Shown: piece by piece, positions 47,744-64,000 of the stretch
Layout of the letters: every line of letters begins with the position of its first letter
Numbering within the stretch: the stretch's first letter is position 1
The notes under the pieces: model-generated
The model's input: only the letters and a program-made list of their open reading frames with translations
Databases searched by the model: none
What the model was told of the DNA's origin: nothing
Source of the DNA: a marine actinobacterium PHSC20C1
GTDB lineage: Bacteria > Actinomycetota > Actinomycetes > Actinomycetales > Microbacteriaceae
Reading direction: 5' to 3'
DNA length: 64,000 nucleotides
Assembly: GCA_000153145.1 (NCBI GenBank)
Contig: CH672415.1
Location: forward strand, 7,835 to 71,834
Program-made: the position numbers and the translations under genes

Positions 47744-47906
47744 GCGTCTAGTCGACAAGATGTATGTCGTCGTGTTTCAATTCCCGGCAGCAGCCTCGTC
47801 TTCGATGGAGTTTGCGCCTCTGAACTGGCATACCAGAGGTCTGGTTCGTCAACGTTCGTCGGATCTCTAATGCTAAGAGAAGCAGCCGGTAGTTAGGATA
47901 TTGAGC

Positions 47907-48797
47907 ATGTCAGCCACTAGAGATGTTGTCGAAAATAAGGTTGGCCGGTGGCTATCCAAGCACAACGTCCCAAATTGGATGTTTCGGTCGGCAACGTTGG
48001 CTGGGATCGCCGGGGCGGTCGTGGCGCAAATGGTAGTTGGTTTTGCGGAGGTTGAACATCGCTTGCTGTTTGTCGCCATCGCAGTGGTCTCGACGCTGTT
48101 TTCAGTCGGTGCGGAGCAACTACTGAGAAAGCGTGATCTGGGGAAAGCCGCAATTAAGGATGATTACGAAGAGGGTCGCCTCACACAGTTCCGATCAGCG
48201 ATGCGCGGAGCTTTAGCACCAATCGCGATCTTCTCTGCCGATGTAGCTACCGCTAAGAGCAGCGGCCTTGATAGCAAAGACGTAATTCTTGGACGAATGT
48301 CTCAAGCGATCGTGGATGCAATAGTTCGAATCGTCGGTAATCAGAGTGAAGCTACGCTGCGAAGCGCCTACTATGCTTTCGGTCACGATTCGAACGGAGA
48401 CTACCTAGAACGAAAGACGTTCAGTGGCAGATCGGGCTCGGATCCACGCCAGTTTTTCCGAGCCGGGACTCGCGATGGAAATCACCTGATAAAGCTAACT
48501 CGCGAAGACAAAATTGTTTTTGTTCCCGACGTCAGCGAATCCCACGTCACACCGACAAACCCAGGGGAATATGCCGCAGTGATCGCGTGCTCAATTACCG
48601 CGGGCGAACGGCCATTCGGTATTTTGACCGTAGACAGCCCCGACGCAGGCGAGCTGACTGAAGATGACAAGCAACTCATTCTAGTAATTGCCCGACTCTT
48701 CGCCGCCGCACTTGCGCAATCACCAACTTTGCCGGCTCTGTCGGGGTATAGCGCTATTCTTGAGGCAAATGAACGAGGTGAACAGGATCATGGCTGA
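47907..48797 (+). CDS. Membrane protein with C-terminal GAF-like domain
   Basis: 296-residue protein. Two N-terminal helices (roughly residues 26-45 and 51-70), an amphipathic linker (KAAIKDDYEEGRLTQFRSAMRGALAPIAIF) and a C-terminal GAF-type sensor fold: MSQAIVDAIVRIVG, IVFVPDVSESHVTPTNPGEYAAVIACSITAGERPFGILTVDSPDAGELTEDDKQLILVIARLFAAALA. The last stretch matches GAF domains closely. No output enzyme is fused. The small gene after it overlaps its end. ATG 47907 with weak GGAT upstream; TTG 47901 is in frame. Confidence 0.7.
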   Translation: MSATRDVVENKVGRWLSKHNVPNWMFRSATLAGIAGAVVAQMVVGFAEVEHRLLFVAIAVVSTLFSVGAEQLLRKRDLGKAAIKDDYEEGRLTQFRSAMRGALAPIAIFSADVATAKSSGLDSKDVILGRMSQAIVDAIVRIVGNQSEATLRSAYYAFGHDSNGDYLERKTFSGRSGSDPRQFFRAGTRDGNHLIKLTREDKIVFVPDVSESHVTPTNPGEYAAVIACSITAGERPFGILTVDSPDAGELTEDDKQLILVIARLFAAALAQSPTLPALSGYSAILEANERGEQDHG

Positions 48798-48966
48798 GGA
48801 AGAAGAAGAAGGTACCGCCAACGATCTCGATATTAGGTGGGTGCGTGGGAATATCTCCGCCGATGAGTACTTTGCGCACATCCGACGTCTTAGCGAGGAA
48901 CAAAGCAAGCGAGAATACCGCAAAGCTATGGATCACCCCTCTGGGTCTGTGGCTGCTCGCCATTAG
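48790..48966 (+). CDS. Small acidic protein overlapping the GAF gene
   Basis: 58-residue protein starting MAEEEEEGTAND, rich in Asp/Glu and then mixed charge (RWVRGNISADEYFAHIRRLSEEQSKREYRKAM), probably one long helix. ATG 48790 has CGAGGTG nine bases upstream and overlaps the GAF gene end by eight bases; ATG 48769 would give 65 residues. Likely co-translated partner of the GAF protein. No family recognised. The 197 bases after it show no gene. Confidence 0.5.
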   Translation: MAEEEEEGTANDLDIRWVRGNISADEYFAHIRRLSEEQSKREYRKAMDHPSGSVAARH

Positions 48967-49163
48967 TTTGACGTGTTCAACTAAACGAGCCGAAGGGCCC
49001 GTGCCGCTGGCGAGTTGACCATATCGCCATATATTTGCCGCCTTCTTGGGTTCGTTAAGTATCTTGCCCGACCGACTGTAGGGACCGTCCATAAACATCG
49101 GCCGCTCGGTCGGTGCGGACAATCATCGGACGGGAAACTGCCTGGAGGAGGTAGGCTCGCCGC

Positions 49164-49571
49164 ATGTTTTACGCAGCACAAGACGCAGTCGTGGCCACAG
49201 GGGGCGACATCCCCACCTTATTGCTGACGGCGCTCGGTGGCGCTATTGTTGCGGCGCTGGCAGGCATTGTCGGTGCTTCTATTCAGGGGCGGCGGGAGCA
49301 TTCCAAATGGGTGCGGGAGCAACGCTTCACGGCATACACCGCATTCGCTGCGGCATTTGCCCATGTGCGCAGTTCAACTGCTGAGAATCCGCAGGTGCCG
49401 GACGCCGCGGTGATCCACGCAGCGATACAGGCGCTGGCGATTCTGGGCCCCAAATCCATGAAGGACGCCGCAATTCGGGTGGTGGACTCGGAGCGGGACG
49501 GCCCCGGCTACCCGGACGCGCTGAATGCCTACTACCTCAAAGCGAACAAGGTACTGCGAATCGGTCTGTAA
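49164..49571 (+). CDS. Small membrane protein of unknown function
   Basis: 135-residue protein with one hydrophobic helix (TLLLTALGGAIVAALAGIVGASIQG, residues 18-42) followed by a soluble helical domain (REHSKWVREQRFTAYTAFAAAFAHVRSS; AALQALAILGPKSMKDAAIRVV-like). This single-helix layout with a four-helix cytoplasmic part is common in small actinobacterial hypotheticals. GGAGGAGG lies 13-19 bases before the ATG. No partner gene is obvious. Confidence 0.65.
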   Translation: MFYAAQDAVVATGGDIPTLLLTALGGAIVAALAGIVGASIQGRREHSKWVREQRFTAYTAFAAAFAHVRSSTAENPQVPDAAVIHAAIQALAILGPKSMKDAAIRVVDSERDGPGYPDALNAYYLKANKVLRIGL

Positions 49572-49577
49572 ACCCAT

Positions 49578-49871
49578 TCAGCCCACAGTGCGTAAAAACT
49601 GGCGCGTTCCAAAGGAGGTCAGGCCGACCTGGCAAGCTGCGAAATGCTTTGCGTGCTCCACGAACGACTCAAAGGGGAACAGGTAGAAGAAACAGGTAGG
49701 GCCACCGCACGATACGGGAGTTCTTTCCCGCCCGGCAGGTCACGCGGCCGTCGACCTTAGCGGCGGCTGGGTTGCGAATATTGAAGTCAGAGTTCCAATT
49801 TGATTGACGTCCAGGGGTGGAGCCTCGGCAATGAGTTTGGTGATGTAGAGGTTGAGTTTGGTTTCAGTCAT
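49578..49871 (-). pseudogene. Decayed small gene with an internal stop
   Basis: Minus-strand frame that starts at ATG 49871 (MTETKLNLYITKLIAEAPPL) and meets TGA at 49740-49742 after 43 codons, then continues in frame without another stop for 53 codons (CGGPTCFFYLFPFESFVEHA and so on) to a stop at 49578. The first part resembles tiny actinobacterial phage/plasmid proteins containing a V/IAEAPPL motif. Either two very short genes or one gene interrupted by a nonsense mutation. Confidence 0.35.
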
Positions 49872-49995
49872 ACCGTCTCTATGCGGGCCGACATCAACCG
49901 GTGGGGATTAACTGAACTCGCCCGTCCCGAGCGTTCGTGTATCTGCACGGTCAGCTCGCTCGTTCCTCGCTCGCCGCCCCCGGAACGCTGCCGTC

Positions 49996-50211
49996 ATGCC
50001 CTCCTCCTTCCTCACAGTTGACGCACCTTCTTTTGTGTCCCCAGGTGTCATGGGTGGCGAATTGCTGGCGCGTTGTTTTCTCTGCGCCGCGGTGACTCCG
50101 TTTCGGGGCCAGTGCGGTCGTTGGGCGGCGCTGTGCGTGGCGAGTCTGGCCTTTCAGGCGGTGTGGCTGATCTGGGGTTTGTGGGTGGTTAGGGCCGCGC
50201 ACAGGGAGTGA
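49996..50211 (+). CDS. Possible small hydrophobic protein
   Basis: 71-residue open frame starting MPSSFLTVDAPS, with one hydrophobic helix in the second half (WAALCVASLAFQAVWLIWGLWVV). Its stop is immediately followed by the next start. CCTCCTTCC upstream on this strand is not a ribosome-binding site, so support is weak. Could be chance; it is retained because of the tight spacing to the next frame. Confidence 0.3.
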   Translation: MPSSFLTVDAPSFVSPGVMGGELLARCFLCAAVTPFRGQCGRWAALCVASLAFQAVWLIWGLWVVRAAHRE

Positions 50212-50529
50212 ATGCGCCAAGCCCCTACTCTCATAGCCGTACTCGGACCTGCTGTCCGCCAGGCCGACGGGGTCTACGCGGGAATCCCAGCGGTGGTCAA
50301 AGCGATCGCCCCAAATGTTGTCCCTCTTACTGCCGAACTAAACGACCTTGCGAAGCTAAATCGAAGCGCAGCATTGTGCGAAGCGGTTCGTGATCTGACA
50401 CGTGGCGATCGGCGGTTGCTCGGTGAGCTTTCGACCGCAGCGCGCAAGAGCGATGGTGATTTTCTGGCGGAGCTTGTTAGGGTCAAGCTTCTGAGCCTGT
50501 TGGTTTTACAGAGAGCGGGGAGGGGTTGA
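50212..50529 (+). CDS. Small hypothetical protein
   Basis: 105-residue, mostly helical protein (AIAPNVVPLTAELNDLAKLNRSAALCEAVRDLTRGDRRLLGELSTAARKSDGDFLAELVRVKLLSLLVLQ). The ATG follows directly after the preceding small frame. No family recognised. The next 286 bases (50530-50815) hold only a doubtful minus-strand frame. Confidence 0.4.
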   Translation: MRQAPTLIAVLGPAVRQADGVYAGIPAVVKAIAPNVVPLTAELNDLAKLNRSAALCEAVRDLTRGDRRLLGELSTAARKSDGDFLAELVRVKLLSLLVLQRAGRG

Positions 50530-50815
50530 TGCGGCGAGCCCCACTAGTTCTGTGGAGCCCGTGGACCGCGGGCTTCTCTCCCAGAAGCTGAGGCAGACGT
50601 GGCGCAGGCTGAGGGGGTCGGGCTAGGGGACTCAGGATCTCGTGGTCGTCGACGAAGCATGTGGCCGTTTCGCGAACGGCGACGCAATCCAGCTCGCAGT
50701 CTCCCCGCATGCCGGCGCCGAAGTCGCTGCTTATCGTGCATGACGGTGGATCGGCTATCGCGGCACGGGTGAATGCCGCGAACGGACGGCGCCGAGCCGT
50801 TCGCGTTCTGGGAGC

Positions 50816-51448
50816 CTACCGGCTGAGCAGTTGAAGCGCCCTTGCCGCGGAAAAGAGAGTTGGCTCTAGGCCGCGGTAGACGACTCGGCCTATCGCGATC
50901 ATTGTCCACTTCGTGTGCTCAGGGACAAAGGCTTGAGCGTCACGGAAACGAATCCGGAGTTCGGGACGATAGAACATCTCCACATGCACGCCGCCTTCGT
51001 CGTTCGCTAGCCATTTAATGAAATCGCGCGTTGAAACACAATCCAGCTCGTCGTTGCCATGACGCAGTACTTCGGATTTCAACAACTCGTCATGATTGCC
51101 CCACACCATGCTTGGGCCCAACGCTCCGACCGAGTAGCCGACCGACAGTGAGTCGAGCGCAGGGTCGAAGTGGTGACCGGAGATAATAAATTCCCAATCG
51201 TCGCCGGTGTACATGTCCCGCGACCATGAGAACTGAGGCGTCACCTGAGTGATCTTCCCTGCGGCAACAGCCAGTGGTTTCCCGTCGATGAGGAGCCGCC
51301 GCACGATCCCAGCGGCTTGGGCCGTGTCATACGTCGTCGCGGTGAGGCGACAACGGTCACGAAGGTCCTCCATCGCGTCTACGAAGTGCTGGAGCACTCG
51401 GCCCTTGGGGCTTCGGATGAAAAGGTTATCTTCGACTCGCTTAGTCAT
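50816..51448 (-). CDS. Hypothetical protein next to the restriction-modification operon
   Basis: 210-residue soluble protein of unknown function. Visible: SPKGRVLQHFVDAMEDLRDRCRL (helix), a middle part with many aromatics (PQFSWSRDMYTGDDWEFIISGHHFDPALDSLSVGYSVGALGPSMVWGNHDELLKSEV), and FRDAQAFVPEHTKWTMIAIGRVVYRGL near the end. Ends in a helical tail. No catalytic signature recognised. It lies 330 bases beyond hsdR on the same strand and is probably not in its operon. Confidence 0.55.
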   Translation of the reverse strand: MTKRVEDNLFIRSPKGRVLQHFVDAMEDLRDRCRLTATTYDTAQAAGIVRRLLIDGKPLAVAAGKITQVTPQFSWSRDMYTGDDWEFIISGHHFDPALDSLSVGYSVGALGPSMVWGNHDELLKSEVLRHGNDELDCVSTRDFIKWLANDEGGVHVEMFYRPELRIRFRDAQAFVPEHTKWTMIAIGRVVYRGLEPTLFSAARALQLLSR

Positions 51449-51753
51449 GGGTGAACGCTAGCGCTCGGATACCGTGTCTCGCAGGTCTGACCTGTCCTCG
51501 TGGGTGGTTTCAAAGCCTGACTCCCGCTCGTCGTAAGTGATTCACACTGGGTCTTGTTCCTAGTGTCTTCCGAGGACAGCGGTTGCCATCTCGCGTGATG
51601 CGGGCCCGACTTGTTCGCCATGTCGTGCTGCAAGTGGTAGCTCGCCTTGGGGCAATCAGCAAGCTACTACCCTCCTAAATTCTCACCCATTCAATTTGAG
51701 GTTGTGATGCCAGAACAGCCTGGAATATGACCGGGGACACTATCGCGGGACCG
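51449..51753. other. Intergenic stretch without gene
   Basis: About 305 bases between the hypothetical gene start and the hsdR terminator. No supported reading frame; it should contain the promoter for the gene ending at 50816, but no clear boxes are seen. Confidence 0.5.
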
Positions 51754-51780
51754 GGGAGGCGAGCATCGCAGAGGCCTCCC
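51754..51780 (-). terminator. Terminator of the hsdMSR operon
   Basis: Seven-base perfect arms GGGAGGC / GCCTCCC (51754-51760, 51774-51780) with a 13-base loop directly after the hsdR stop. Confidence 0.6.
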
Positions 51781-51781
51781 G

Positions 51782-54700
51782 CTAGTAGTGCGTCTCGATG
51801 TACTGGTAAGCACTTTCGAACGGCTCACCGGTCAGCGGAAGGCCGAACCCCTTGAATGCCTTCAACAGACTCCGACGCACAAGTTTCCGACCATCGTCCT
51901 TGGTGTTCCACCCGGTGTAGGAGACTGTGCGGGCGATCCGATCGATCTCTGTCACGATGTCGGCGATCATCACCGGAGTTCCCTCAGGGGCGAACTCTTC
52001 GAAGATCTGAGTCAGTGCTCCGACCTTGGGGTCCGGCAACAGGTCGAGACCCGCGGCACCGCTTTGGTCTTCGGCATGCTCGGCGCTCTTCACATCTTTT
52101 GCAAGGGTAAATAGCTCGCGTAGGAACTCAACAGAGACTTTGGCGCGGGACAGCTCACTTTCGCGGAGTCTGTCTAGACGGTCGGCCAATGACTGGTAAA
52201 TCGCATGATTCTGGTTCGGGCCGGCAAGGCGTCGTTTGAGGCGACCGGCAATCGAGTCGATGATCTCATCCGCCGTCTTCTGCTTTGACTCCGTGTCGTC
52301 GTCATCGAGAAGACCCTCGTCGATGAGTTTCTGGACAGTGGTTGAGTCGGCAATCTGGACGGTCAGTTGTGGGTTGCGGACCCTAATCTCGCTGATATTC
52401 GCGAACACCAGCTCGCGCGTTTTCGCACCAAACCGTTCCCACAACAGAGACGACAGATCTGTTGGCGTTACCGCCTCATAGATCTTCGCCACCCACCGGT
52501 AGTCGGACCGTCGTGCTTCGAGCTCCGGATGGGGTGCGACGGTCTCCCACAGAGACTGGGCCATCATGAACTGCTGACCGAACCGCGCCCTGCTGTCGCC
52601 CGGCGGGACCCGATCAATCGCCGACATCAGGGTGTCTGCGGAGGAGTCGGTCCTGTCAATGCCGACAAACCTATCCAGCATCGAGTCAAGCTCACCTGAG
52701 AACGCATCGATCAGCGACTCGACGTCCAACTCCCGCTGTTTCGCTTCCGGGTTGTTCGGTGTCATCGCTCGGGCGAAACCGTCACCGAGACCGATGTAGT
52801 CGACGATGAGTCCGAACTTCTTCTTCTGGCCTGTCTCTGAGTTTGTCCAGGGCCGGTTCGTTCGGGTGATCGTCTGGAACAGGGTATGCAACTTCATCGG
52901 CTTGTCCAGATACAGGACGCCCTCGATCGGGGCGTTGAATCCCGTGCCGAGTTTTGCTGTCACGAGAACGAACTTCAGCTTGTCCGTCGGCGATCGGAAA
53001 CGGTCGAGAATCTGTTCCTCCTCGCTTTCCGAAAGACGGTACGTCTCCCACTCGGTAGGGTCATCCTTCCCGGCAAGGCTCATCACGACAGCGGCTTCAT
53101 CATCGCCACGTTCGGTCAGCAGCCTGCTGAGCGTCTCGTAATAAGCCACGCAGAGCGCACGGTTATAGAGGACTATCTGTGCCTTCATACCCAGCGGATC
53201 GATCGTCGAGTAGAAGTGCTCCAAGATGTCCCGGCAGACCGCTTCGATTCGTTGCGGGTTTGCCAAGAGGGTAGCGACAGTGGAGAGGTTCGCCGCGACT
53301 TTAGCCTGCTCCGCATCAGTCAAGCCCTCGGCCTTCGCCAAGGCATCGAACTCCTCATCAAGGTTGTCCTTGTCGATCTGAAACTCGACCATCCTCGACG
53401 ACACCCTCATCGGTACCGTGGTTCCATCGGCGATTGACCGGTCTGAGTTGTAGGTGTTCAGGGCAAAATCTGGGTCAGACTCGTCACCGAACAACTTGAA
53501 CGTGTTCCGCTCTAGATCGGCAATTGGGGTACCAGTGAAACCGAACAGAAACGCGTTCGGAAGCGATGCCCGCATCTGCTGGCCGAGGGAGCCTTCCTGC
53601 GTTCGATGGGCCTCATCGACCAACACGATGATGTTCTCCCGCTCAGACAGCAGCCCTGCGTCCTTGAACTTGTGGATGGTTGTGACAACGACGCCGCGCT
53701 GGTTTGCCCTCAAAAGTTGATGAAGCTCCCGTGAGGAGCTGGCCTCCTGGAGTCTCCCGACCGAACCTGCCGCATCAAACTGCGCGAATGTTTGTCGTAC
53801 AAGCTGGGACCGGTCAGCGATCACGACGATAGTTGGATTCTTGAGACTTGGTTCGTGTATCAGACGGGTGGCCGCCCACGACATCGCCAACGTCTTACCG
53901 GAACCTTGCGTGTGATAGATCAGGCCGCGGCGAGGTGCACCAGCAACAACCCGGCTGACGATCGCCTCGACCGTCTCATGCTGGAAATAGCGGGGGACAA
54001 TCTTCGTCATCGACGGCACGCCGTTGCGTTGGCCACGCTCGAAAAGGGCGTAGTCCTCCAGCACCGACAGAAGCACCGCGGGGTTCAGTAATTCATCGAC
54101 AGCCAGACGAACGCGTGGCCAGCCGGACATGTTCGCATCAACCTGTGTGCTGCCCCATTGCTCCCAGCGGTCAATCTGGGTTCGGATTGCGGCGTACCTG
54201 AATTCACGCCCCTCAGTCGCGAACGACAACAGGTTGGGAACGAAGAAATGCGGTCGCTCAACCTCGTAGGTGCCGTAGACATCCTTGGCGCCGTGCATCC
54301 ACGAAATCTTGTGGTCTACCGGGGTCTTCGTCTCACCGACAACCAACGGGATGCCGTTCACCCAGACGACGACGTCGAACCGCGCAGCGTTGCCAGGCGT
54401 CCCGTATGTGACCTCATCCGAGACGATGAGGATATTGTTCTCAGGATGATCGAAGTCGATCAGACGAACATTTTCGTCCAACCCTGAGTCTTCAACCGAA
54501 ACGGTGCCTCTGCCGCGCAGCCACGTAGTGAATTTCTCGTTCGCCACAAGCAAGCCATCATCTGAGGAGTTCACCATGAGAAGCCGCAGCATCGTGATGA
54601 CCTGGTCGACACGGGTGTCGTCACCAGCCCATTGTGGATTCAGCCTGCGGATGGCCTCAGCCAGATCCGACTCAATCAGCACTGCTTCGTTCGAGCGGTT

Positions 54701-54790
54701 GAGCTTGCTTCCCGGGATGTGTGTCCAGCCGGCCGCGACCAAGCGAGCGATGACGTCTTTTTGAATTGTGGACGTTTCAGAGAACACCAT
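51782..54790 (-). CDS. hsdR: Type I restriction enzyme, restriction (R) subunit
   Basis: Motor and nuclease subunit of the type I system, 1002 residues. The N-terminal PD-(D/E)xK nuclease shows Asp139 and Glu153-x-Lys155 (FDVVVWVNG..VVGETK). The translocase follows: GSGKT at 296-300, VDEAHRTQ (DEAH, 392-395), GFTGTP, then helicase motif IV-VI regions (VLVTAKLGTGFNAP, ITRTNRPW). A C-terminal helical domain binds the methylase complex. The start overlaps the hsdS stop as TAATG. All key residues are present, so the enzyme looks functional. Confidence 0.95.
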   Translation of the reverse strand: MVFSETSTIQKDVIARLVAAGWTHIPGSKLNRSNEAVLIESDLAEAIRRLNPQWAGDDTRVDQVITMLRLLMVNSSDDGLLVANEKFTTWLRGRGTVSVEDSGLDENVRLIDFDHPENNILIVSDEVTYGTPGNAARFDVVVWVNGIPLVVGETKTPVDHKISWMHGAKDVYGTYEVERPHFFVPNLLSFATEGREFRYAAIRTQIDRWEQWGSTQVDANMSGWPRVRLAVDELLNPAVLLSVLEDYALFERGQRNGVPSMTKIVPRYFQHETVEAIVSRVVAGAPRRGLIYHTQGSGKTLAMSWAATRLIHEPSLKNPTIVVIADRSQLVRQTFAQFDAAGSVGRLQEASSSRELHQLLRANQRGVVVTTIHKFKDAGLLSERENIIVLVDEAHRTQEGSLGQQMRASLPNAFLFGFTGTPIADLERNTFKLFGDESDPDFALNTYNSDRSIADGTTVPMRVSSRMVEFQIDKDNLDEEFDALAKAEGLTDAEQAKVAANLSTVATLLANPQRIEAVCRDILEHFYSTIDPLGMKAQIVLYNRALCVAYYETLSRLLTERGDDEAAVVMSLAGKDDPTEWETYRLSESEEEQILDRFRSPTDKLKFVLVTAKLGTGFNAPIEGVLYLDKPMKLHTLFQTITRTNRPWTNSETGQKKKFGLIVDYIGLGDGFARAMTPNNPEAKQRELDVESLIDAFSGELDSMLDRFVGIDRTDSSADTLMSAIDRVPPGDSRARFGQQFMMAQSLWETVAPHPELEARRSDYRWVAKIYEAVTPTDLSSLLWERFGAKTRELVFANISEIRVRNPQLTVQIADSTTVQKLIDEGLLDDDDTESKQKTADEIIDSIAGRLKRRLAGPNQNHAIYQSLADRLDRLRESELSRAKVSVEFLRELFTLAKDVKSAEHAEDQSGAAGLDLLPDPKVGALTQIFEEFAPEGTPVMIADIVTEIDRIARTVSYTGWNTKDDGRKLVRRSLLKAFKGFGLPLTGEPFESAYQYIETHY

Positions 54791-55977
54791 TAAGCATGAA
54801 CCTCCAGTAAGTCGTCGTACGTGGCTGGGATCTCGTGCTCGCCGGAAAGGAGGGCGGTGAGTAGGTTGGTGCGGAGGCAGCGGAGGGCGGAGGCGTAGGA
54901 GCCGGCGTCCGAGCACAACAGCAGAAAAGCATCGAGGTAATCTGCTATTGACGCTTGATCGTCGCGGGGTGGAACGGCAATCGCTTCCGATAGGACGATG
55001 CTTTTGCTTAGGTTCGGCTGCGCAGCTCCAATTGCACGCGCCCGGAGGCTTCCGGTGCGAGAGCGAATTGCGTGCATCAGCAATCTTGGCTCGATGAGGG
55101 TTGTTTCGGGAACTAGGGCAATTACTGCTTGGTTCATGCTCATTGGGGCTCTCAGGAAACCCGCTGTTCCTTTTGTGTCACCCTGGCCATACATCGCTAC
55201 AACCGTGGATCCGGCGGGCGCAATCCATGCCGACGAGCCCGAAAGCCCGAATTCGCTAAGAGACTCGTCCGCTGTGTGAATATTGTCGTTGTTCACTTCG
55301 CCAGATTTCAACCACGGTATTGCTCCGCCGAAGTTGTCAAGATTGAGCCGCGATGGTGTTCCCCCCGCCTTTGCTTTTTTGAGGACCTCCGAGATCTCCC
55401 TGCGCGGGTGTCTGGGCCCGTCGAAATCTTGAAGCGCGGCGATGTACGCAAACGATGCTGCTTCGTGGGATTCATCTGCGACCGCAATCGCCTCATCCAA
55501 TGCACCCATCAGATCGACGATGCGACACTGCTCGGGGAGGGAGGGGAGCCATGTCTCGATCGAGAGAAAATCCTTCTCCTTGAGGCGTCTTCTTTCCGTA
55601 GTTCCTGAAGCCCGCAGTGCGGCCTCTGCCTGGAAGTCTTTGGTTTGGAGGATCAGCCCGATGAAATCCACTAGGGCCAAGTCCGTATTCGTCTCGAAAG
55701 TGGGGAAGTCGTTGGTGACTAGGCAGCCATCGACGTCTGCGCGAGCGATTCCGAAACTCGCTCTCGTTGCCCACATCCGGTTATATATGACATCGCCTTC
55801 TCTTATGCGCGCCAATTGTTTGGCCTTCACACCTTCGGGGTCGGCGACTTCACGCAAGTACACGCCACCCGCGTACCACCGGACACCTGCGTACGGCACC
55901 GATTCGACATCGGCCACCACCACGGATCGATTCACTTGCGCGAGCACGTCGCCAAGCACTCGCCAGCCCTCACTCAT
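54790..55977 (-). CDS. hsdS: Type I restriction enzyme, specificity (S) subunit
   Basis: 395-residue protein that sets the DNA recognition site for methylation and cleavage. Two target-recognition domains are visible: the first ends in a spacer helix around LPEQCRIVDLMGALDEAIAVADES; the second runs from PRREISEVLKKAKAGGTPSR with WLKSGEVNNDNI, and ends in PPRDDQASIADYLDAF helix. Two different domains imply a bipartite target; the sequence recognised cannot be predicted. It overlaps hsdM by eight bases and hsdR by one. Confidence 0.92.
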   Translation of the reverse strand: MSEGWRVLGDVLAQVNRSVVVADVESVPYAGVRWYAGGVYLREVADPEGVKAKQLARIREGDVIYNRMWATRASFGIARADVDGCLVTNDFPTFETNTDLALVDFIGLILQTKDFQAEAALRASGTTERRRLKEKDFLSIETWLPSLPEQCRIVDLMGALDEAIAVADESHEAASFAYIAALQDFDGPRHPRREISEVLKKAKAGGTPSRLNLDNFGGAIPWLKSGEVNNDNIHTADESLSEFGLSGSSAWIAPAGSTVVAMYGQGDTKGTAGFLRAPMSMNQAVIALVPETTLIEPRLLMHAIRSRTGSLRARAIGAAQPNLSKSIVLSEAIAVPPRDDQASIADYLDAFLLLCSDAGSYASALRCLRTNLLTALLSGEHEIPATYDDLLEVHA

Positions 55978-57493
55978 GGAATCCAGCCGCCTTGAGCTTT
56001 TCGTCTAAGGTCGTTTGCGCCGTCGACAGACGGCCCTGCGCCTCCCGCATGAGGGCCAGAGCTTCGTCGACGTTCGCCTCAGCAGCGGCCATACCTTTGA
56101 GGTAACGGCCTATGTTCAAATCGAAGCTGTTGGTCTCGATCTCTGAAAGGTCAACCATTCGCACCGACAAGCCGCCGTCGCCGTCAATATCCCGACCGGT
56201 TTTATAAGCACTGTCGATTGCCTCGATATTTGCGACTGACATCGTGTTCTGGTTCGTGCCTGGCACCGAGAGCGATTTCGCGTCAATAAACATCACCTTG
56301 TTGACGCGTTCAGCTAATTTGTTCTTCCGGAAAATCAGGATGCATACCTGTATGGAGGTTGAGTAGAAAAGGTTTGTCGGTAAGCCGATGACTGCCTCTA
56401 GCAGGCCAGTGCGGACGAAATGTTCGCGGATGGCAGCCTCTTTCCCGCCCCGGAACAACGCTCCATGGGGCATGATTATCCCGGCCCGTCCGGTGTCATC
56501 TTTGATCGTTGAGACCATGTGCTGGATCCAAGCCCAGTCGCCGTTAGCTGGAGGGGGAACCTCACCGCCAATCGCTCGCTTGTAGGGGTCGCGGGCCCAC
56601 ATGTCCGCGCCCCAGTTCCGCAATGAGAACGGCGGGTTAGCAATCACGACATCAAACTTTCGGAGCTGTCCGGCTTCGTCTAGGAGCTTCGGCTCTCGAA
56701 AAGTGTCGCCGCGCATGATCTGGAAGGATTCTTGCCCGTGCAAGTACAAGTTCATTCGTGCCATTGCAGCTGTGGTCAGATTGAACTCCTGGCCGTACAG
56801 GGTGAGGGTCCGGGAGTCGCCCCCGCTGGCATCTACTGCATTGACCGTCTCGACTAACATTCCGGCAGAGCCACAAGCAGGATCGCATACTGAGTCTCCT
56901 GACTGCGGCTGCAACAGCTTCACCAGCAGATGCACCACATGTCGCGGTGTGAAGAACTCACCCGCTTTCTTTCCGCTGGCCTCAGCGAACTCCCGCAGCA
57001 AGTATTCGTACCCGGCGCCGAGCATGTCTCCGCTGGCATTGTTCGGGTCAAGAGTCAGCTTGTCAAACGCGTCAAGGAGCTTAGTTAGTGCACTCTCCGG
57101 TAGCCGGTCAGTATTCGACCAGTTAACGTCGCCAAAAACGCCGTCGAGCTTGCCGGGGTTTGCCTCCTGGATACGCAGCAGTGTTTTGCCGAGCTTCGAG
57201 CCGGTGTTCACCGTGACGTCGTACACGTCGTTCCAGTGGCATTCGTCTGGGATGAGGAACGGATGGTAGTCCGCTTCGATCTCTGGTGTTAGCGCATCAC
57301 CGAAGTCCGAGACAGCCTGCCTATGTTGAAAATCCCACGAGTCACTGATCCATTTGAAGAACATGACTGGGAAGACGAAGGACTTGAAGTCGCCGGCGTC
57401 TACGGGGCCACGCAACGCATTTGCTGCGGACCAGAGAGCTGACTCCAACTGACGCTGGGTGAGGTGGCTCGGGTCGGGGGAGGCAAGCGTCAT
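55970..57493 (-). CDS. hsdM: Type I restriction enzyme, methylase (M) subunit
   Basis: N6-adenine DNA methyltransferase subunit, 507 residues. SAM-binding motif I is DPACGSAGML (204-213) and the catalytic motif IV NPPF (286-289). The N-terminal helical domain (LESALWSAANALRGPVDAGDFKSFVFPVMFFKWISD) and GEFFTPRHVVHLL are typical of HsdM. A C-terminal coiled stretch (KGMAAAEANVDEALALMREAQGRLSTAQTTLDEKL) contacts HsdS. First gene of the operon. Confidence 0.96.
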   Translation of the reverse strand: MTLASPDPSHLTQRQLESALWSAANALRGPVDAGDFKSFVFPVMFFKWISDSWDFQHRQAVSDFGDALTPEIEADYHPFLIPDECHWNDVYDVTVNTGSKLGKTLLRIQEANPGKLDGVFGDVNWSNTDRLPESALTKLLDAFDKLTLDPNNASGDMLGAGYEYLLREFAEASGKKAGEFFTPRHVVHLLVKLLQPQSGDSVCDPACGSAGMLVETVNAVDASGGDSRTLTLYGQEFNLTTAAMARMNLYLHGQESFQIMRGDTFREPKLLDEAGQLRKFDVVIANPPFSLRNWGADMWARDPYKRAIGGEVPPPANGDWAWIQHMVSTIKDDTGRAGIIMPHGALFRGGKEAAIREHFVRTGLLEAVIGLPTNLFYSTSIQVCILIFRKNKLAERVNKVMFIDAKSLSVPGTNQNTMSVANIEAIDSAYKTGRDIDGDGGLSVRMVDLSEIETNSFDLNIGRYLKGMAAAEANVDEALALMREAQGRLSTAQTTLDEKLKAAGFHE

Positions 57494-57933
57494 CGATAAT
57501 TCCTTATTTTGGGGTGCGTGGCGAGCCTATCGCGCCTCTTTGATTGACCAAACACTCAGGCGCAGAATGGAAACGTGATGGGAGCGGTCTGCGACGGAGC
57601 GGCGCACTCTAGGCCTGAATTACACTGCGACAAATACCAACCTCGGACACATCGGCAAGTTTCACGAAGGTATTCCGGAGTTTTTACAAGGGAAGCCTAA
57701 CAAGAGCAGGCTTATTGCTGAGTTAGCTCGGCGAAAGGGTCCAAGTTGATCCTAAAGATGAACCGTCACACTCCAACTAGGGGGCTCACCGCAACCCCGT
57801 CTGGCGGCGAGCGTCCTCTAAACGCCGTCGATGAGCTCCGCGTCAAGCCCCTCTCGGCGCCGCAGCCACTCCGCGTCGCCCGCTGGTTACATGCTGTCTG
57901 AGTTCTGCGGCTGATACCGCTGCCCCCTATTGG
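57494..57933. other. Intergenic stretch, possible gene fragment
   Basis: 440 bases. Should contain the hsdM promoter at its left. A plus-strand frame ending at 57749 (GKFHEGIPEFLQGKPNKSR, about 53 codons, no start codon) looks like coding remnant. Otherwise nothing recognisable. Confidence 0.4.
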
Positions 57934-58530
57934 CTAGGGAACGACATGAATCAACAGCTTGCCGGAGACCCTGTCCCAGGCAAGCTGAACGACCGCGTTC
58001 GCACCGGCAGGGACTTCAAGGTCAGCTGATCGTATCGAGGACTTGAACTTCAGCGTTCCGCCCCCCTGACGTTCACATTCGAATCTACCTTCGCGACCAA
58101 CTTCACCGATGACGATTCCCTTCCAAAAGATCTTTACACTCGGGTTTATCGCGAAGCGCTCTCGATATCCGAGAACGGTGACTTTAGTTGTGCCCTCGGG
58201 ATGGACATCGTTCTGGTCAGATTTAGTGTTCGAACGAGCTTCGACGACGGGAGCCGGGCTTTTCGTCGAAGGTCCACCGTTCCCGGTACTCACGAATTGA
58301 GTTCTAGGTGACGAGACTGTCGTATTCGAAGGTTTGGGGCGTTTGTAAAACGACATCGCAATCATGCCGACGCCAGCCCCAAAGAGCAACACGGTGTCGA
58401 GGAATCCCGCGCCGGCGTCAACTGCCCCGAGAGTTCCACCTGGGCCAGCGGGCTCGTTGCCGGAACCGAACAAGCCAAAGGTCAGTAAGACGAGTAGCGC
58501 GGTGCCAAGGATGCGAAGGAATACTCTCAT
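57934..58530 (-). CDS. Hypothetical membrane-anchored protein
   Basis: 198-residue protein. Two hydrophobic helices at the N-terminus (VFLRILGTALLVLLTFGLFG and FLDTVLLFGAGVGMIAMSFY), a Ser/Pro/Thr-rich linker, then a C-terminal beta-rich domain of about 80 residues (TTKVTVLGYRERFAINPSVKIFWKGIVIGEVGREGRFECE). The last part could be a small carbohydrate- or protein-binding fold; no family recognised. An in-frame ATG 17 codons upstream exists; the inner Met gives the better membrane-protein start. Confidence 0.55.
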   Translation of the reverse strand: MRVFLRILGTALLVLLTFGLFGSGNEPAGPGGTLGAVDAGAGFLDTVLLFGAGVGMIAMSFYKRPKPSNTTVSSPRTQFVSTGNGGPSTKSPAPVVEARSNTKSDQNDVHPEGTTKVTVLGYRERFAINPSVKIFWKGIVIGEVGREGRFECERQGGGTLKFKSSIRSADLEVPAGANAVVQLAWDRVSGKLLIHVVP

Positions 58531-58641
58531 GCTGGCACGGTAGCAGTGAGGGGGCCCGTCTTCTAGCTCGAAGTGCAACATCTCACGACCCGGCCAGGCT
58601 ACATAAAAGTAGACATTGCGGCAGCAGCGAGCCCGAGTGGC

Positions 58642-59241
58642 CTAGGGCCGCGGCACTCGTCGGATGGTTCGCGCCGAGCATCGAAGCACCTCAGCGATCT
58701 CACCTGTGGTGCGTCCAGCTTCGCGCATCCGGTTGACCTCAAGCTTCTGGGAAGTGCTGAGCGACGGTGGGCGCCCGCCAACACGACCTCTGGTGCGGGC
58801 CGCAGCCAAACCATCGCGGGTGCGTTCGATCAATTGCGCCCGCTCCATTTCGGCGATCGCGGCGATGACGCTCAGAACGAGCATCCCCGCCGCGGTGCCG
58901 GTGTCAACTCCGAGGTTCAGAATCAGAAGCGCGATCTGGCGTTCGCGTAAATCTTCCACGAGCTCAAGGAGGTTTTTGGTCGAGCGGCCCAGCCTGTCCA
59001 GGGATTGGATAACGACCGTGTCGCCAGGTCTTGCGAAGGCCAGCATCTCGTCGAGGGCCGGCCGGGATTTGTGCGACCCGGAGACTCCGTCGTCGGTGAA
59101 GATGCGCGTGCAGCCGGCATGTAGTAGCGCATCGTTCTGTCTATCGAGGTTTTGGTCAGCCTTGCTGATTCGGGCGTAACCAAGTAGATGGCCAGAAACG
59201 GACGTTGTGGCGCTTGGAGTATCGCCTAGGTTATTGTCCAT
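58642..59241 (-). CDS. Serine recombinase (resolvase/invertase family)
   Basis: Small serine recombinase of 199 residues. Catalytic Ser26 is in GYARISKADQNLDRQ, followed by VSGSHKSRPALDEML, VIQSLDRLGRSTKNLLELV (conserved Arg residues), and AEMERAQLIERTRDGLAAARTRGRVGGRPP, ending in a helix-turn-helix (GRTTGEIAEVLRCSARTIRRV) for DNA binding. This is the size of Tn3/Gin resolvases, able to resolve or invert DNA between short sites. ATG 59241 is chosen with GGTGG upstream; the frame begins 24 codons earlier. No clear transposase accompanies it. Confidence 0.92.
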   Translation of the reverse strand: MDNNLGDTPSATTSVSGHLLGYARISKADQNLDRQNDALLHAGCTRIFTDDGVSGSHKSRPALDEMLAFARPGDTVVIQSLDRLGRSTKNLLELVEDLRERQIALLILNLGVDTGTAAGMLVLSVIAAIAEMERAQLIERTRDGLAAARTRGRVGGRPPSLSTSQKLEVNRMREAGRTTGEIAEVLRCSARTIRRVPRP

Positions 59242-59336
59242 TTCACCACCCACAGATTTGTTGGGTTTCAATGATGGACTGACAGGGTGGTCTAAATCGG
59301 TCGTTTGTGTCATAGCTCAGTAGTGCGCGGATGCCT

Positions 59337-59567
59337 CTAGGGCGGGGATGTTGTTAGACATTCACTGACAACTTCGGTGAGGCTACTGGCGGCACGGGCG
59401 ACGCTAGCCAGTCTGCGCATGTTGCCGCCCAAATGGTCAAACTCCGTCGGCGATAGCCGACGGTTCGCCTCGCGGCGGTAGCCGGATGCCGGGCAGGACA
59501 TTGGCTGTGCGGGTGTCGGCCCCATATTAAGAGCTCGGCGCCGGGGCGCCTCGCGTGACTTCGTCAT
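59337..59567 (-). CDS. Doubtful small basic protein
   Basis: 76-residue frame, Arg/Ala-rich (REAPRRRALNMGPTPAQ) with a helical C-terminus (LSPTEFDHLGGNMRRLASVARAASSLTEVVSECL). It lies upstream of the recombinase on the same strand. Mobilisation accessory proteins can look like this, but no motif fixes it. Confidence 0.25.
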   Translation of the reverse strand: MTKSREAPRRRALNMGPTPAQPMSCPASGYRREANRRLSPTEFDHLGGNMRRLASVARAASSLTEVVSECLTTSPP

Positions 59568-60637
59568 GCTTCTCGTTCTGCATCGTCATGTTGCTGCTTG
59601 CTGTGCAAGTGTTCCGGGGAGCAGCCCGACGGGCAACGAGACGCCGCCATGGACCGCTGAGGTCAATGGTGGTGTCGTGGTTGTTCGGTGGGACGCGACT
59701 TGCAGTGGCTCTCTGCGTTCGCCCGGGGCTTCGCCCCGTGTGTCGTCATGTTGGTCTGTTTGCTTCGTGTTGTCTGCTTTGGGCTCTCTTCGTTCGCCGG
59801 GCTTCGCCCGCGCAACGTCTTGTCGGGTCGGTCCGCTTCGTTATGTTCGCTGTCCCCTCCACTCCACCGGTCTGTGTTCATTTAGATGGACGGTGGTCTA
59901 TTTCAATGGACTCCCGCTGTCCCGTGAAGCATCGGTGAGCATCCTCAACGTGTTCGTCACGTGAGCCCATGAAGGGGTTTCCCTGCCGGGGCAGCCTTCG
60001 GCGACGGTTGGTCAGGCGCATAGGAGCGTCACGTTGACTGGGCGTTACCGATACGGGGTCGGAGTGAAGTGGGGGTTTGGCTGCGCCTGCATGTGGGGTT
60101 GCCAGACGGTGACGTTCCGCTTCGCGAGCGCCCAGCCGACGGCGATCGGAAGGGGTGTTCAGGTCGGAGCGGATGCGGAAACCTCAAACAGGCTTGGAGT
60201 GTAGCCCCGAAGGCCAGACGACGGGTGAGCGCAGCGAACACGGAGAGCCGCCGGGGCGACGGAGCGAAGCGACGTCTTGGTGAGGTTCGGGAACGCAACG
60301 GTATGTGGCCCGGAGTCAGATCGCTGGGCGGAGCACAGATTACGGAGGGAGGCTCGGCCGTCGGCGGCCTATGGCTTGGGCGATTCACGGGACAAAAATG
60401 TTGCAGCGACTGGCGGTTTTGGGGACGGTTTCTCGCTGTCAATGCGTAGTCAACTGATGGGGCAAACAGGAACCGACTCGTCGGTCGAACACTTCAGTGG
60501 TGGCACCTTCTTCGAACCCTCACAGACAGGTAACCCTGTGGTGCATCGATCGGCATTTGTTTTCCCGCTTTTTGCCAGAGCAGCGCATCCTGCGGGATCT
60601 CGATGTCTCGATGTGCGCCACCCCTTAGTCTTGAGGT
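59568..60637. other. GC-rich stretch with hairpin repeats, no convincing gene
   Basis: About 1.07 kb. Two related repeats, each a CTCT-x-CGTTCGCC segment followed by a GGGC-TTC-GCCC hairpin, lie at 59711-59740 and 59786-59812. GAGCGcAGCGA and GAGCGaAGCGA occur at 60227-60237 and 60262-60272. The frames that cross the region (plus 60069-60449, 60277-60813; minus 60029-60442) contradict one another and lack ribosome-binding sites. A replication or transfer origin, or a structured RNA, would fit. Confidence 0.4.
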
Positions 60638-61117
60638 ATGCCCACATATTACGGTCGCAACACTGTTTCAGTTGTACTGCTCTCTATAGCTCTCGCCGGC
60701 TGCACGGCGCCCCCTCCCGTAGCGCTCGTTGGTTCGGTATCGAAAGAGGCTGCCTACGCGACGTATACCAGTATCGGCGGAGCGATGGAGCGGGAAACAT
60801 TCGGGGCAGCTGAAACCAATTTAGGTCGCTACTGCGAAGAGGTCGTAGACGGATTCAGCCTAGGCGGCCTCGATGTCAAGATCATTGATGCCAGCGGTCA
60901 GACCGTCGCACTCGCGCCTTTGACCTTCGACGCGGGGGCAACCGAGCACAACGGCGGATATCTTAACTGTGTCTGGTCTTATACCGTCCCCGATTTCGAG
61001 TCGGACTCTGAGTTCTTCACCGTCGAGATCGAGTCGGTTCCTGATAAGCAGGAATTCGCAAGAGAAGCGATGCTGGCCGGCCCGAACCTGTCCGTTATCG
61101 ACCTGGGGCGACGATAG
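60638..61117 (+). CDS. Small lipoprotein of unknown function
   Basis: 159-residue secreted lipoprotein: signal peptide with VVLLSIALAGCTAPPP (Cys near residue 22), a Pro/Ala linker, then a beta-rich domain with two further cysteines (RYCEEVV and YLNCVWSY) that may form a disulfide outside the cell. No family recognised. ATG preceded by GAGGT. Alone, convergent with the polymerase gene. Confidence 0.7.
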   Translation: MPTYYGRNTVSVVLLSIALAGCTAPPPVALVGSVSKEAAYATYTSIGGAMERETFGAAETNLGRYCEEVVDGFSLGGLDVKIIDASGQTVALAPLTFDAGATEHNGGYLNCVWSYTVPDFESDSEFFTVEIESVPDKQEFAREAMLAGPNLSVIDLGRR

Positions 61118-61287
61118 CCGCCATTTGAGAATTGCGCGGTACTGCGAAGGCAACTTAGATATCTCAGTGGAACGCCGGAATCTGGTCGTTTCTGTTGGAG
61201 GGCGCCAGTAGTTCGCTGCCCACTGCCCGCAGTTCGCTGAGCTGCCGGAAGAGGCCCGATACAGCCTCCCAACCGAAAGGTGTTACC

Positions 61288-61321
61288 CCCACGAGCCGAA
61301 AGGCCACCAACCGCTCGTGGG
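61288..61321 (-). terminator. Terminator after the family A polymerase gene
   Basis: Perfect nine-base arms CCCACGAGC / GCTCGTGGG (61288-61296, 61313-61321), 16-base loop, 59 bases beyond the polymerase stop. Confidence 0.6.
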
Positions 61322-61379
61322 AGCAACAAGCCGCAGATAGCGGCCGCGCCGGGTGCGAACCGGCGAGTATGAAGGGGGC

Positions 61380-62951
61380 TTACGTCTTGCGCCAGCTCCG
61401 CCCAATAACAACAGCAGTGCCGGTAACCGGAACACCACGGAACACCGTGTTCATCTCACGTTCCAGCACAATCCGCGCCCATTCGCTCCTATTAGCAGGC
61501 ACCGAAACCACAAGCTCATCATGGACCCCAAGGAAAAGGCTTTTCGGGCCGAGCACGGCCGCCACACGAGCGACCGCCGCCCAGAAAATATCTGCCGACT
61601 CAGCCTGAACCCGGTTATTGAGAGCAGCATGCAGCCCGCGCTTCGGTAGCGGTACTGGCCGGCCATCCTGGGTGAATGCGGGCCGACCTGCGCGCACCTC
61701 CGATTGAAGCCACAAGTCGTATGCCTGTAGGCCAGGAAACGCAGCCCACACGCTGTCCAGAAGGACTTTCGCATCCTTCGGTTCAATACCAAGCGCGCGG
61801 CCGAGAGCATTTTTGCCTTCACCATAGAAAATTCCGAGCATTAGCGTCTTTGCCCGGTCGCGCAGAAGCGGGTTCGGCTTCCCATCCGCATCATCAGCCT
61901 CCGCACCCCAAATCCGGCGGCTGAGCTCAGCATAGAGGTCTCCGGATTCAAGAGCGGCGAGCAGGTCAGGGTCTTGCGACAGACCTGCGCTGACACGCGG
62001 CTCCATCTGTGAAAAGTCCAGGCTGACCAACACCTCACCGACAGGAGCCATAAGCAGCGGCCGCAGGCCCCGGTGAATGTTCTGAAGCGCCGGACCAGTG
62101 ACAGCCCCACGACCAGTGCGTGCACGCCGGACATAGAGTGTCGAATGGGTGCGGCCATTATTCAAAGCCCGTTGAATCTCTCGCAGCTTGCCGACGCGAG
62201 ACGCGACGCTCCGAACCTCTCTGAATTTCTTCCACCGTGACTGCGCTTCGTCGGTTTCGGGAATTGAAACCCGGTCATAGAGGTCCCTTGACAGGCTCGG
62301 GGCACCCTTGGCATCAACGAGAAAGACACCCACAGGGGCGAGCCATGCATGGATTGCCTTCGAACCACGGGCCGTCGCACTATCTGTGAGGTCGATGCCG
62401 AGCTCAGCAATCGCAGCGACACGGTGCGCATCCGCCATCGCCAGCTCCCTATTCAGAAGCTCAACATCAATCGGATGCCCTTCGAGCTGGCGCGACCGCC
62501 AAAGCTGTTCCTGAGCGCATGAAGACCAGACAGCAGCGCGAGTCGCCGCCGAAGCGTCATCAGGAAGCGCCACGACGAAACGAGCCGTCGCGACAGCATC
62601 CCTGGCAGCGCCTTTCGAATTCGACTCGCGCCAGATTCCGGGATACACCACATGCCCTGCTGTGGTCGCATCAAACAGCCACGACAGCGCATCAACATCA
62701 AGTCGGAGAAGTCTGGCAAGACGCAACGATGTCTTCGCCGCTTCTTCAGCCCAGACTTTGCGCCCTGAGTTCGACAATGCAGTAACGAATTCTCCGAGGA
62801 GCTCGTCGCTTGCGACTTCGAACACCCAGCTTTCGCCTGTGGCGTCACCAATAGCGACCTGGGTGTCCGTCAGCGCAAAGCCCAAAGGGCGCTTGTCCTG
62901 GAGCCAGACGATGAGCGCCGGCAGTTCTGGCGCCGTCAGCCGGCGACTCAT
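61380..62951 (-). CDS. Family A DNA polymerase (phage/element type)
   Basis: 523-residue polymerase. C-terminal polymerase motifs: A VSLDFSQMEPR (Asp312, Glu317), B RDRAKTLMLGIFYG (Arg364, Lys368, Tyr376) and C VHDEL (Asp478). The residue equivalent to E. coli Pol I Phe762 is Leu372. The N-terminal 280 residues (QDKRPLGFALTDTQVAIGDATGESWVFEV) correspond to the 3'-5' exonuclease fold, but the metal-binding Asp/Glu set is not evident, so proofreading is doubtful. Related actinobacterial proteins are annotated bifunctional 3'-5' exonuclease/DNA polymerase. Four-base overlap with the upstream ATPase gene points to a replication operon of an integrated element. Confidence 0.88.
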   Translation of the reverse strand: MSRRLTAPELPALIVWLQDKRPLGFALTDTQVAIGDATGESWVFEVASDELLGEFVTALSNSGRKVWAEEAAKTSLRLARLLRLDVDALSWLFDATTAGHVVYPGIWRESNSKGAARDAVATARFVVALPDDASAATRAAVWSSCAQEQLWRSRQLEGHPIDVELLNRELAMADAHRVAAIAELGIDLTDSATARGSKAIHAWLAPVGVFLVDAKGAPSLSRDLYDRVSIPETDEAQSRWKKFREVRSVASRVGKLREIQRALNNGRTHSTLYVRRARTGRGAVTGPALQNIHRGLRPLLMAPVGEVLVSLDFSQMEPRVSAGLSQDPDLLAALESGDLYAELSRRIWGAEADDADGKPNPLLRDRAKTLMLGIFYGEGKNALGRALGIEPKDAKVLLDSVWAAFPGLQAYDLWLQSEVRAGRPAFTQDGRPVPLPKRGLHAALNNRVQAESADIFWAAVARVAAVLGPKSLFLGVHDELVVSVPANRSEWARIVLEREMNTVFRGVPVTGTAVVIGRSWRKT

Positions 62952-64000
62952 GAGAACTCCGGGTCGATAACTGGCGCCGGGTGACGTTCTCGTCCCGCGA
63001 GGATGAGAGTGTCACCTGTGTAGCAGGTCAGCTCATACTGGGCGGTGTTATCACGCTTCTTTTCCGCTCGCATTAGCGTGAACGTTGACCCATCAAACGG
63101 GATTGGGGTCCGGTTGATTGATTTGAATTCCTTGGCCCATTTTGAGCCAGCGTTTGCCGCATACTGCGTCCCCACCAGGTTGGTTGGGAGTTCCGGTACT
63201 TTTTCGCCTTTGAGATGTGTTTTCGCGAGCTGGACGAGCTCGGCCGCAGTTTTTAGCTCTCCCTTTGCTTTGAGCCACAGGTGGGCCAGCAGCTCTCCCC
63301 AGGCAATGGAGTTTGCGTCTCCAGTCTCCACTTCGTCGAGCCAGTCGCTGATGGCCACCTGTGCCAGAGTCTGACCCGATGCGGTGCTGATGTGGGACAT
63401 TGCGCCGAGGATGCGTTCGGCCCAGTTGTGGTTCATCGCCATTGAGTTGATTTCGTGGGCGGGTTCATTCTGGAGCGAGTGCAGGAGGACGGTGTGGAGG
63501 GCGGCTAATAGGGCGGGCCGGCTCTGGTTGATGTAGCCGATGATGTTCTTGTGCCGGAACCCCGAACGTCCGACGACGCGTACCCCGGGTGGGACGACGA
63601 TGGTGATGCCGAGGATTCGGCGGTTGAAGTCAGTGCCATACTCAACGTTCGAGCCGCAACCGGTGATTATCATGTTTGACCGCTTCACCACGTCATTACC
63701 GCCGAGGATGCGGACTTTGTCATCACCATCAATGCCGGTGATAGCTGCGGTAATGATTTTGGATTCGAGCGTTGACCCGAAAGCCACTTCATCCGCGTGG
63801 AAGTGTCGGCCGCCTTCGACCAGCAGCGAACACATTCCCTTTTGCGTTTCCTGGTCCTGACTCAGGCCAAAATAGAATCCGACAGAGTTGGGGCTGCCCT
63901 GTCCGAGAAGTCTGCCGAGCAGTGCCATCAATGACTTACCGGAGCCACGGGCTGGTGCGTTGAAGAAGAACCCGATAGAGCCATTGGTGAGCCCCCGGCC
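62948..64000 (-). CDS. P-loop ATPase/helicase-like protein (5' end outside the window)
   Basis: Partial: 350 codons visible, the gene continues past the window edge. The frame is open to the last base and includes a Walker A, FNAPARGSGKSLMALLG, at about 63910-63955. Further: FYFGLSQDQETQKGMCSLLVEGG, VPPGVRVVGRSGFRHKNIIGY, and helical C-terminal part. The pattern suits an element-borne primase/helicase-type ATPase acting with the polymerase it overlaps; I cannot name the family. Confidence 0.6.
   Translation of the reverse strand, partial: GRGLTNGSIGFFFNAPARGSGKSLMALLGRLLGQGSPNSVGFYFGLSQDQETQKGMCSLLVEGGRHFHADEVAFGSTLESKIITAAITGIDGDDKVRILGGNDVVKRSNMIITGCGSNVEYGTDFNRRILGITIVVPPGVRVVGRSGFRHKNIIGYINQSRPALLAALHTVLLHSLQNEPAHEINSMAMNHNWAERILGAMSHISTASGQTLAQVAISDWLDEVETGDANSIAWGELLAHLWLKAKGELKTAAELVQLAKTHLKGEKVPELPTNLVGTQYAANAGSKWAKEFKSINRTPIPFDGSTFTLMRAEKKRDNTAQYELTCYTGDTLILAGRERHPAPVIDPEFS

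What the first reader, a model, noticed from the sequence alone, without database searches (positions are those of the whole stretch)
59568..60637. Structured GC-rich region as possible origin or RNA
Repeated CGTTCGCC plus GGGC-TTC-GCCC hairpins and GAGCGmAGCGA motifs occur in about 1.1 kb without reliable genes, between recombinase and replication genes. This fits an oriT, replication origin or non-coding RNA of the element.
Basis: inference. Interest (0 to 1): 0.65.

Follow-up and report, generated by a model that had tools for sequence, protein, structure and literature searches.

The report
Giant structured RNA of mobile islands
A stretch of about one kilobase without genes, inside a mobile DNA island of a Salinibacterium-like chromosome, is probably the gene of a large folded RNA that no RNA catalogue lists; copies of it lie beside the island's own kind of DNA polymerase in all three places where that polymerase was found.

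Summary
In detail: 59439-60432 is a conserved, structured unit without a gene, between a resolvase and a replication module (family A polymerase, primase/helicase, serine integrase) in a ~21-kb island whose empty site I found in a relative. Six copies occur in 3 of 27 genomes of the genus. Of 7 window reading frames tested, 5 are broken in all five other copies and 2 short ones stay intact only in L015 and L016. No Rfam family matches, bar one chance-level hit at E 4.5. With Watson-Crick-only helices, energy beats 200 of 200 column shuffles and double changes 199 of 200 for + strand helices (183 of 200 for - strand helices); mismatches lean to those tolerated as G-U in a + strand RNA. All three island-type polymerase genes in 27 genomes lie 0.2-3.1 kb from a copy. 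I read it as a new family of large mobile-element RNA, like GOLLD/ROOL in kind but unrelated in sequence, probably serving replication or maintenance of the island (function inferred). A DNA-level origin is the main rival; no expression data exist. Single-sequence folding is weak evidence (11 of 54 control rows do as well).

The parts
59439..60432 (+). conserved unit without a gene (the stretch homologous to the other copies); predicted RNA gene
59444..59463 (+). short hairpin (loop GATA, GACA in one copy) just upstream of the predicted start, present in 5 of 6 copies
59525..59530 (+). TATTAA, -10-like hexamer (TATTAA or TGTTAA in 6 of 6 copies); no conserved -35
   Evidence: promoter role inferred, one search found no promoter-like site
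59531..59690 (+). 5' domain: series of hairpins with compensatory changes (model R1 covers 59520-59690)
59650..59889 (+). adenine-poor arm (at most 6% A in 140-nt windows)
59866..59874 (+). 5' strand of a 9-bp helix invariant in the alignment, spanning about 230 nt (its 3' strand is one base short in this copy)
60103..60110 (+). 3' strand of that helix
60200..60432 (+). purine-rich, uracil-poor 3' domain holding the GAGCGmAGCGA motifs; 60216-60432 is 94% identical to the second copy of this genome
58642..59313 (-). resolvase/invertase (neighbour)
61380..62951 (-). island-type family A DNA polymerase (neighbour, convergent with the RNA)
62948..64000 (-). primase/helicase-like 910-aa protein, cut by the window end (neighbour)
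   Evidence: weak PHROGs matches, one named DNA polymerase/primase; no Pfam match
47706..64000 (.). part of the island that lies in the window; it ends about 4.66 kb beyond the window, after a serine integrase

Best explanation
The unit encodes a structured non-coding RNA of about 0.9 kb, read from the + strand, carried by serine-integrase islands with a phage-type replication module. Shown by computation: six homologous copies, no reading frame kept in all of them, conserved and covarying base pairing, and constant position and orientation beside the island-type polymerase. Inferred: transcription starts just after the conserved TATTAA (59525-59530); the RNA folds into a 5' hairpin domain plus a long rod in which an A-poor arm pairs with a U-poor purine-rich arm; it accumulates when the island is active and helps its replication, copy number or maintenance, as suggested for ROOL on a megaplasmid.
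For: Six copies in 3 of 27 genus genomes. 5 of 7 window frames broken in all five other copies; no Pfam match for 9 frames. Watson-Crick-only helices predicted on the + strand: energy -116.2 against -82.2 sd 7.3 in 200 column shuffles (0 as low); 17 pairs changed on both sides against 7.9 sd 3.2 (1 of 200 as high); mismatches 29 G-U to 8 A-C as read on the + strand, fraction 0.78 against 0.63 (10 of 200 as high). Helices predicted on the - strand: energy 0 of 200 as low, the same + strand G-U lean, 0.76 against 0.59 (5 of 200 as high). 5' domain: 7 pairs with change on both sides against 3.3 in shuffles (2 of 500 as high), 93.3% of cells paired against at most 50.2% when slid. + strand folds better than its shuffles in 6 of 6 copies, z -2.3 to -6.0 (12 shuffles each). 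The 3 island-type polymerase genes in 27 genomes (my cut: over 280 bits) each lie beside a copy, same relative orientation. No Rfam match beyond chance.
Against: No transcript data. No shared terminator or -35 seen; the promoter scan found none. Single-sequence z of -2.27 or lower in 11 of 54 control rows, two of which overlap the unit's 5' part; one - strand copy (L017) also reaches -2.29. Double changes for helices predicted on the - strand are only weakly above shuffles (13 against 7.3, 17 of 200 as high). With G-U allowed the picture turns round: + strand 31 against 25.5 (5 of 48 as high), - strand 23 against 13.4 (0 of 48); with all six copies the - strand alifold energy is as far below its shuffles as the + strand's, z -4.1 and -3.9. 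Pairing between the A-poor arm and the 3' domain is stronger within a copy than with other copies' 3' domains in only 2 of 6. Three of six copies (L014, L015, L016) show no polymerase in their 15-kb loci. Found in one genus only, in sampled genomes. For the role: the ROOL authors call the copy-number effect possibly indirect (PMC5643018, passages), and a GOLLD RNA was dispensable for phage production (PMC7567579, passages).
Confidence: 0.62

Rival explanations
1. A DNA-level element: replication origin, single-strand initiation site or other cis site of the island, whose hairpins work in single-stranded DNA next to the replication genes.
For: Beside polymerase and primase/helicase in 3 of 3 cases; conserved pairing scores on both strands.
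Against: Mismatch lean towards + strand G-U (10 and 5 of 200 shuffles as high), which is modest; no iteron array; no relaxase or known initiator recognised in the island (Pfam on 17 of 17 called ORFs, PHROGs on 15 of 17). The lower + strand folding energy does not count for much, since the shuffled + strands are lower too: it is mostly composition.
Confidence: 0.22
2. A cis-acting long leader for the next gene downstream.
For: In L013 and L014 a shared reading frame follows directly, 80% identical over 156 aa.
Against: What follows differs between loci: a frame with a lipoprotein-like start in the window (by eye, no Pfam match), the polymerase on the opposite strand in L017, other sequence in L015/L016.
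Confidence: 0.08
3. A decaying repeat or selfish hairpin sequence with no function beyond being copied.
For: Patchy distribution; patch of 94% identity between the two copies of one genome amid 71-77%; HNH endonuclease gene beside L016 with a 54-aa stretch of a homologue beside L015 (63%).
Against: Compensatory changes and blocks such as TTAAGAGCTCGG in 6 of 6 copies point to selection on the fold.
Confidence: 0.06
4. A fast-evolving protein gene.
For: The A-poor sequence leaves long open frames (59566-59964, 132 aa); two short frames stay intact in L015 and L016.
Against: 5 of 7 frames are broken in all five other copies and none is intact in all; no family match.
Confidence: 0.02

Closest known systems
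GOLLD RNA
   Same: Large (many members over 800 nt), ornate, carried by prophages and phages, function unknown (PMC12286853, passages read).
   Different: No Rfam match in any copy beyond chance; no tRNA close to the window copy; the host element carries its own polymerase, and no phage structural gene was recognised (PHROGs on 15 of 17 called island ORFs).
ROOL RNA
   Same: Large structured RNA on mobile DNA; deletion of the L. salivarius lncRNA lowered the megaplasmid-to-chromosome ratio from 1.61 to 1.16 (PMC5643018, passages read), the model for the role proposed here. That this lncRNA is ROOL I take from PMC12286853.
   Different: Family not matched; about 0.9 kb predicted against 520 and 659 nt in the two papers; often near tRNA islands, unlike here.
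Abundant non-coding transcripts of phage ICP1 (about 800 nt) and of its PLE satellites
   Same: Long or abundant non-coding RNA of a phage or a satellite island (PMC7567579, passages read).
   Different: The PLE transcript lies between inverted repeats, and PLE has no dedicated replication machinery apart from RepA; here polymerase and primase/helicase are present. No sequence comparison was made.

Membership tests
GOLLD / ROOL / OLE (Rfam) | match to the family's covariance model | tested here: not met
   none at gathering score in the six copies; none at E up to 2 for five copies; for the window copy only a hit to another family at E 4.5
GOLLD / ROOL | often encoded near tRNA genes | tested here: not met
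   nearest tRNA left of the window copy 34 kb away, none in about 30 kb to its right (L019, L071); of L013-L017 only L014 has one, about 2.7 kb from its copy
GOLLD / ROOL | carried by phage or mobile DNA | tested here: met
   window copy: island with serine integrase, empty site in a relative; island borders of the other copies not determined
GOLLD / ROOL | RNA-only multimer | not testable with these tools
   needs cryo-EM
Large structured non-coding RNA (kind) | no reading frame kept in all copies, covarying helices | tested here: met
   strand assignment weaker
Large structured non-coding RNA (kind) | transcribed | not testable with these tools
   no expression data held
oriT | relaxase gene on the same element | tested here: not met
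   17 of 17 called island ORFs of 90 aa or more scanned with Pfam, none a relaxase; a mobilisable element could borrow one
Iteron-type replication origin | array of near-identical direct repeats | tested here: not met
   the only family with three members in 59300-60900 has copies 73% and 65% like the first, spaced 160 and 95 nt
Phage satellite | integrase and replication genes without structural genes, mobilised by a helper phage | tested here: inconclusive
   integrase, polymerase and primase/helicase present; no structural match in PHROGs for 15 of 17 called ORFs; helper not testable
Group I / group II intron, HEARO | Rfam model match | tested here: not met
   (that Rfam holds these families is recalled)

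The most novel reading that the evidence does not exclude
A new class of giant mobile-element RNA with a two-arm design (an arm almost without A facing an arm poor in U) that scaffolds or controls the replication of a satellite-like island with its own DNA polymerase, and that moves between islands independently of that polymerase.
Probability: 0.15. Interest if true: 0.8.

Novelty: new variant of a known kind. Interest (0 to 1): 0.5.

Why it matters
Large RNAs of phages and mobile DNA (GOLLD, ROOL) have no settled function. A family found beside a replication module, with two copies in one genome and copies without the polymerase in others, gives a setting in which a role in replication or copy number can be tested directly. 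The A-poor/U-poor arms are a feature I recall from no other RNA family (not searched).

Tried and rejected
Wider homologues. DNA search of 398 sampled family genomes gave G000 and G006 plus five matches of 25-43 nt at E about 9e-4 (G012, the source of the query, was not in that sample). R1 gave G000, G006 and one 26-bit match in G420 among 398 family genomes (that stretch was read and looks like a chance hairpin), G000 plus one 40-nt match among 396 order genomes, G000 alone among 198 phylum genomes; these three ran with stricter filters and scored 7 to 14 candidates a genome, so distant copies could be missed. In the genus, R1 also gave a weak reverse-strand match inside a G012 copy. Plasmid and phage collections: no DNA match with two copies as query. 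Viral contigs: four pattern scans with no match and two protein scans with no relative. Genome contigs: one contig, Salinibacterium sp. SWN248, the same as G006 contig 1 by length. Primase/helicase relatives in 5 plasmid and 21 phage records are distant (under 30% identity, under half of the query); none in 398 family genomes outside G000.

A-poor stretches are not unique to the unit: the window has two others, 46150-46289 and 50026-50206. The region around the second, 49572-50540, does not fold better than shuffles (z 1.49); the first was not followed. Of two T-poor places in L018 one was read and looks coding by eye. Rejected as a tRNA: the 85-nt stretch at the island's right edge is the 3' part of a tad-type gene (gene name by eye from its translation).

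Literature: searches. One search (Salinibacterium with noncoding RNA) found no paper; no title or abstract start listed in the others describes this RNA. Papers seen: PMC12286853, PMC7567579, PMC5643018 as passages only; the rest as search listing only.

Row dropped: the test of ORF 60029-60442 was clipped out of frame; it was repeated.

Full report
What is there. The stretch 59439-60432 has no Rfam match beyond a chance-level hit at E 4.5 and no reliable gene. It has homologues once more in the same genome (G000:C1 about 704.0-705.03 kb), once in G006 and three times in G012, that is in 3 of 27 genomes of the genus (3 of 27 with model R1). One search counts a fourth genome, G009, on a 33-nt match that I take as chance. 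I call the genus Salinibacterium from the title of the contig found, which by length is contig 1 of G006.

Conservation. The six copies align over about 1 kb with blocks identical in all, such as TTAAGAGCTCGG and CGCCTCGCGTGAC. Of 7 window reading frames, 5 carry stops in all five other copies; 59688-59885 (+) and 59663-59881 (-) are intact in L015 and L016 but stopped or shifted in the other three. I count none as conserved.

Structure. On single sequences the + strand folds better than dinucleotide shuffles in 6 of 6 copies, z -2.3 to -6.0, against 0.2 to -2.3 for the - strand. This alone is weak: 11 of 54 control rows of the window reach -2.27, two of them overlapping the unit. Comparative tests are stronger. 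In the 5' domain 93.3% of cells pair and 7 pairs change on both sides, 3.3 in shuffles, 2 of 500 as high. Over the whole alignment, with helices from Watson-Crick pairs only and re-predicted on each of 200 column shuffles, the observed energy is never reached; 17 double changes are reached once for helices predicted on the + strand, and 13 are reached 17 times for those predicted on the - strand; mismatches lean to G-U as read on the + strand (10 and 5 of 200 shuffles as high). Against this, when G-U pairs are allowed the + strand's count of double changes is not unusual (5 of 48 as high) while the - strand's is (0 of 48), and energies lie below all 48 shuffles on both strands; with all six copies the alifold z is -3.9 on + and -4.1 on -, with four or five copies -4.6 to -5.8 on + and -1.5 to -1.8 on -. 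I therefore hold the conserved fold as well supported and the + strand as likely, not proven.

Composition. In five copies an arm of 213-290 nt has at most 6% A in every 140-nt window (L013 is shorter there and lacks it), and the 3' domain has 13-19% U and about 60% purine. Two other A-poor stretches occur in the 64-kb window, so this is unusual rather than unique. The two arms can pair strongly, but within-copy pairing is stronger than pairing with other copies' 3' domains in only 2 of 6, so it rests on composition rather than on matched sequence.

Setting. A relative (G005) shows the empty site: the island runs from about 47706 to about 68655 in window numbering and interrupts the 3' part of a tad-type secretion gene (named by eye), with a serine integrase at its right end. 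Its recognisable genes are a GAF protein, type I restriction-modification, a resolvase, the polymerase, a primase/helicase-like protein and the integrase. No relaxase was recognised among 17 of 17 called ORFs (Pfam) and no structural gene among 15 of 17 (PHROGs). The island-type polymerase occurs at 3 loci in 27 genomes by my cut of 280 bits, every other match being 75 bits or less; all three lie beside a copy of the RNA, at 0.95, 0.2 and 3.1 kb, and convergent with it. These polymerases share only 34-53% of residues and blastn aligned no more than 221 nt of the window's gene with L017, while blocks of the RNA align at 69-94% with the window copy. So the RNA is more constrained than its neighbour or is exchanged between islands; the 94% patch between the two copies of one genome favours some exchange. 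Three copies (L014, L015, L016) show no polymerase in their loci, and their island borders were not determined.

Interpretation. The best reading is a large structured RNA of the island. A role in replication, copy number or maintenance is inferred from position and from ROOL, whose deletion lowered megaplasmid copy number, an effect its authors call possibly indirect (PMC5643018, passages). GOLLD and ROOL are nearest in kind (PMC12286853, passages) but not in sequence. A DNA-level origin remains the main rival.

Noticed in passing
window 47706 to about 4.66 kb past the window end: A ~21-kb serine-integrase island interrupts the 3' part of a tad-type secretion gene; the empty site is present in G005 (L090).
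   Followed up: yes
window 60216-60432 and L013 7818-8034: 94% identity between the two copies of one genome amid 71-77% in other blocks, which suggests recombination between copies.
   Followed up: partly
L017 6474-7070: The frame just upstream of that RNA copy weakly matches a type I restriction subunit R domain, below Pfam's cut-off; perhaps a remnant, which would echo the window's gene order.
   Followed up: no
L016 6194-7048, and L015: HNH endonuclease gene beside one copy without a polymerase, and a 54-aa stretch of a homologue beside another.
   Followed up: no
L015 3746-3810: Guanidine-III riboswitch (Rfam match) just upstream of a 107-aa ORF (3820-4143).
   Followed up: no
L013 7990-9516 and L014 5932-7135: Two shared frames beside two copies: a short unknown frame (80% over 156 aa) and a HIRAN-domain protein.
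   Followed up: partly
L013 about 6764-6950: A stretch of about 185 nt repeated in several genomes, six or more times in G012; perhaps an insertion-sequence remnant.
   Followed up: no
window 46150-46289 and 50026-50206: Two other stretches of 140 nt or more with at most 6% A on the + strand.
   Followed up: partly
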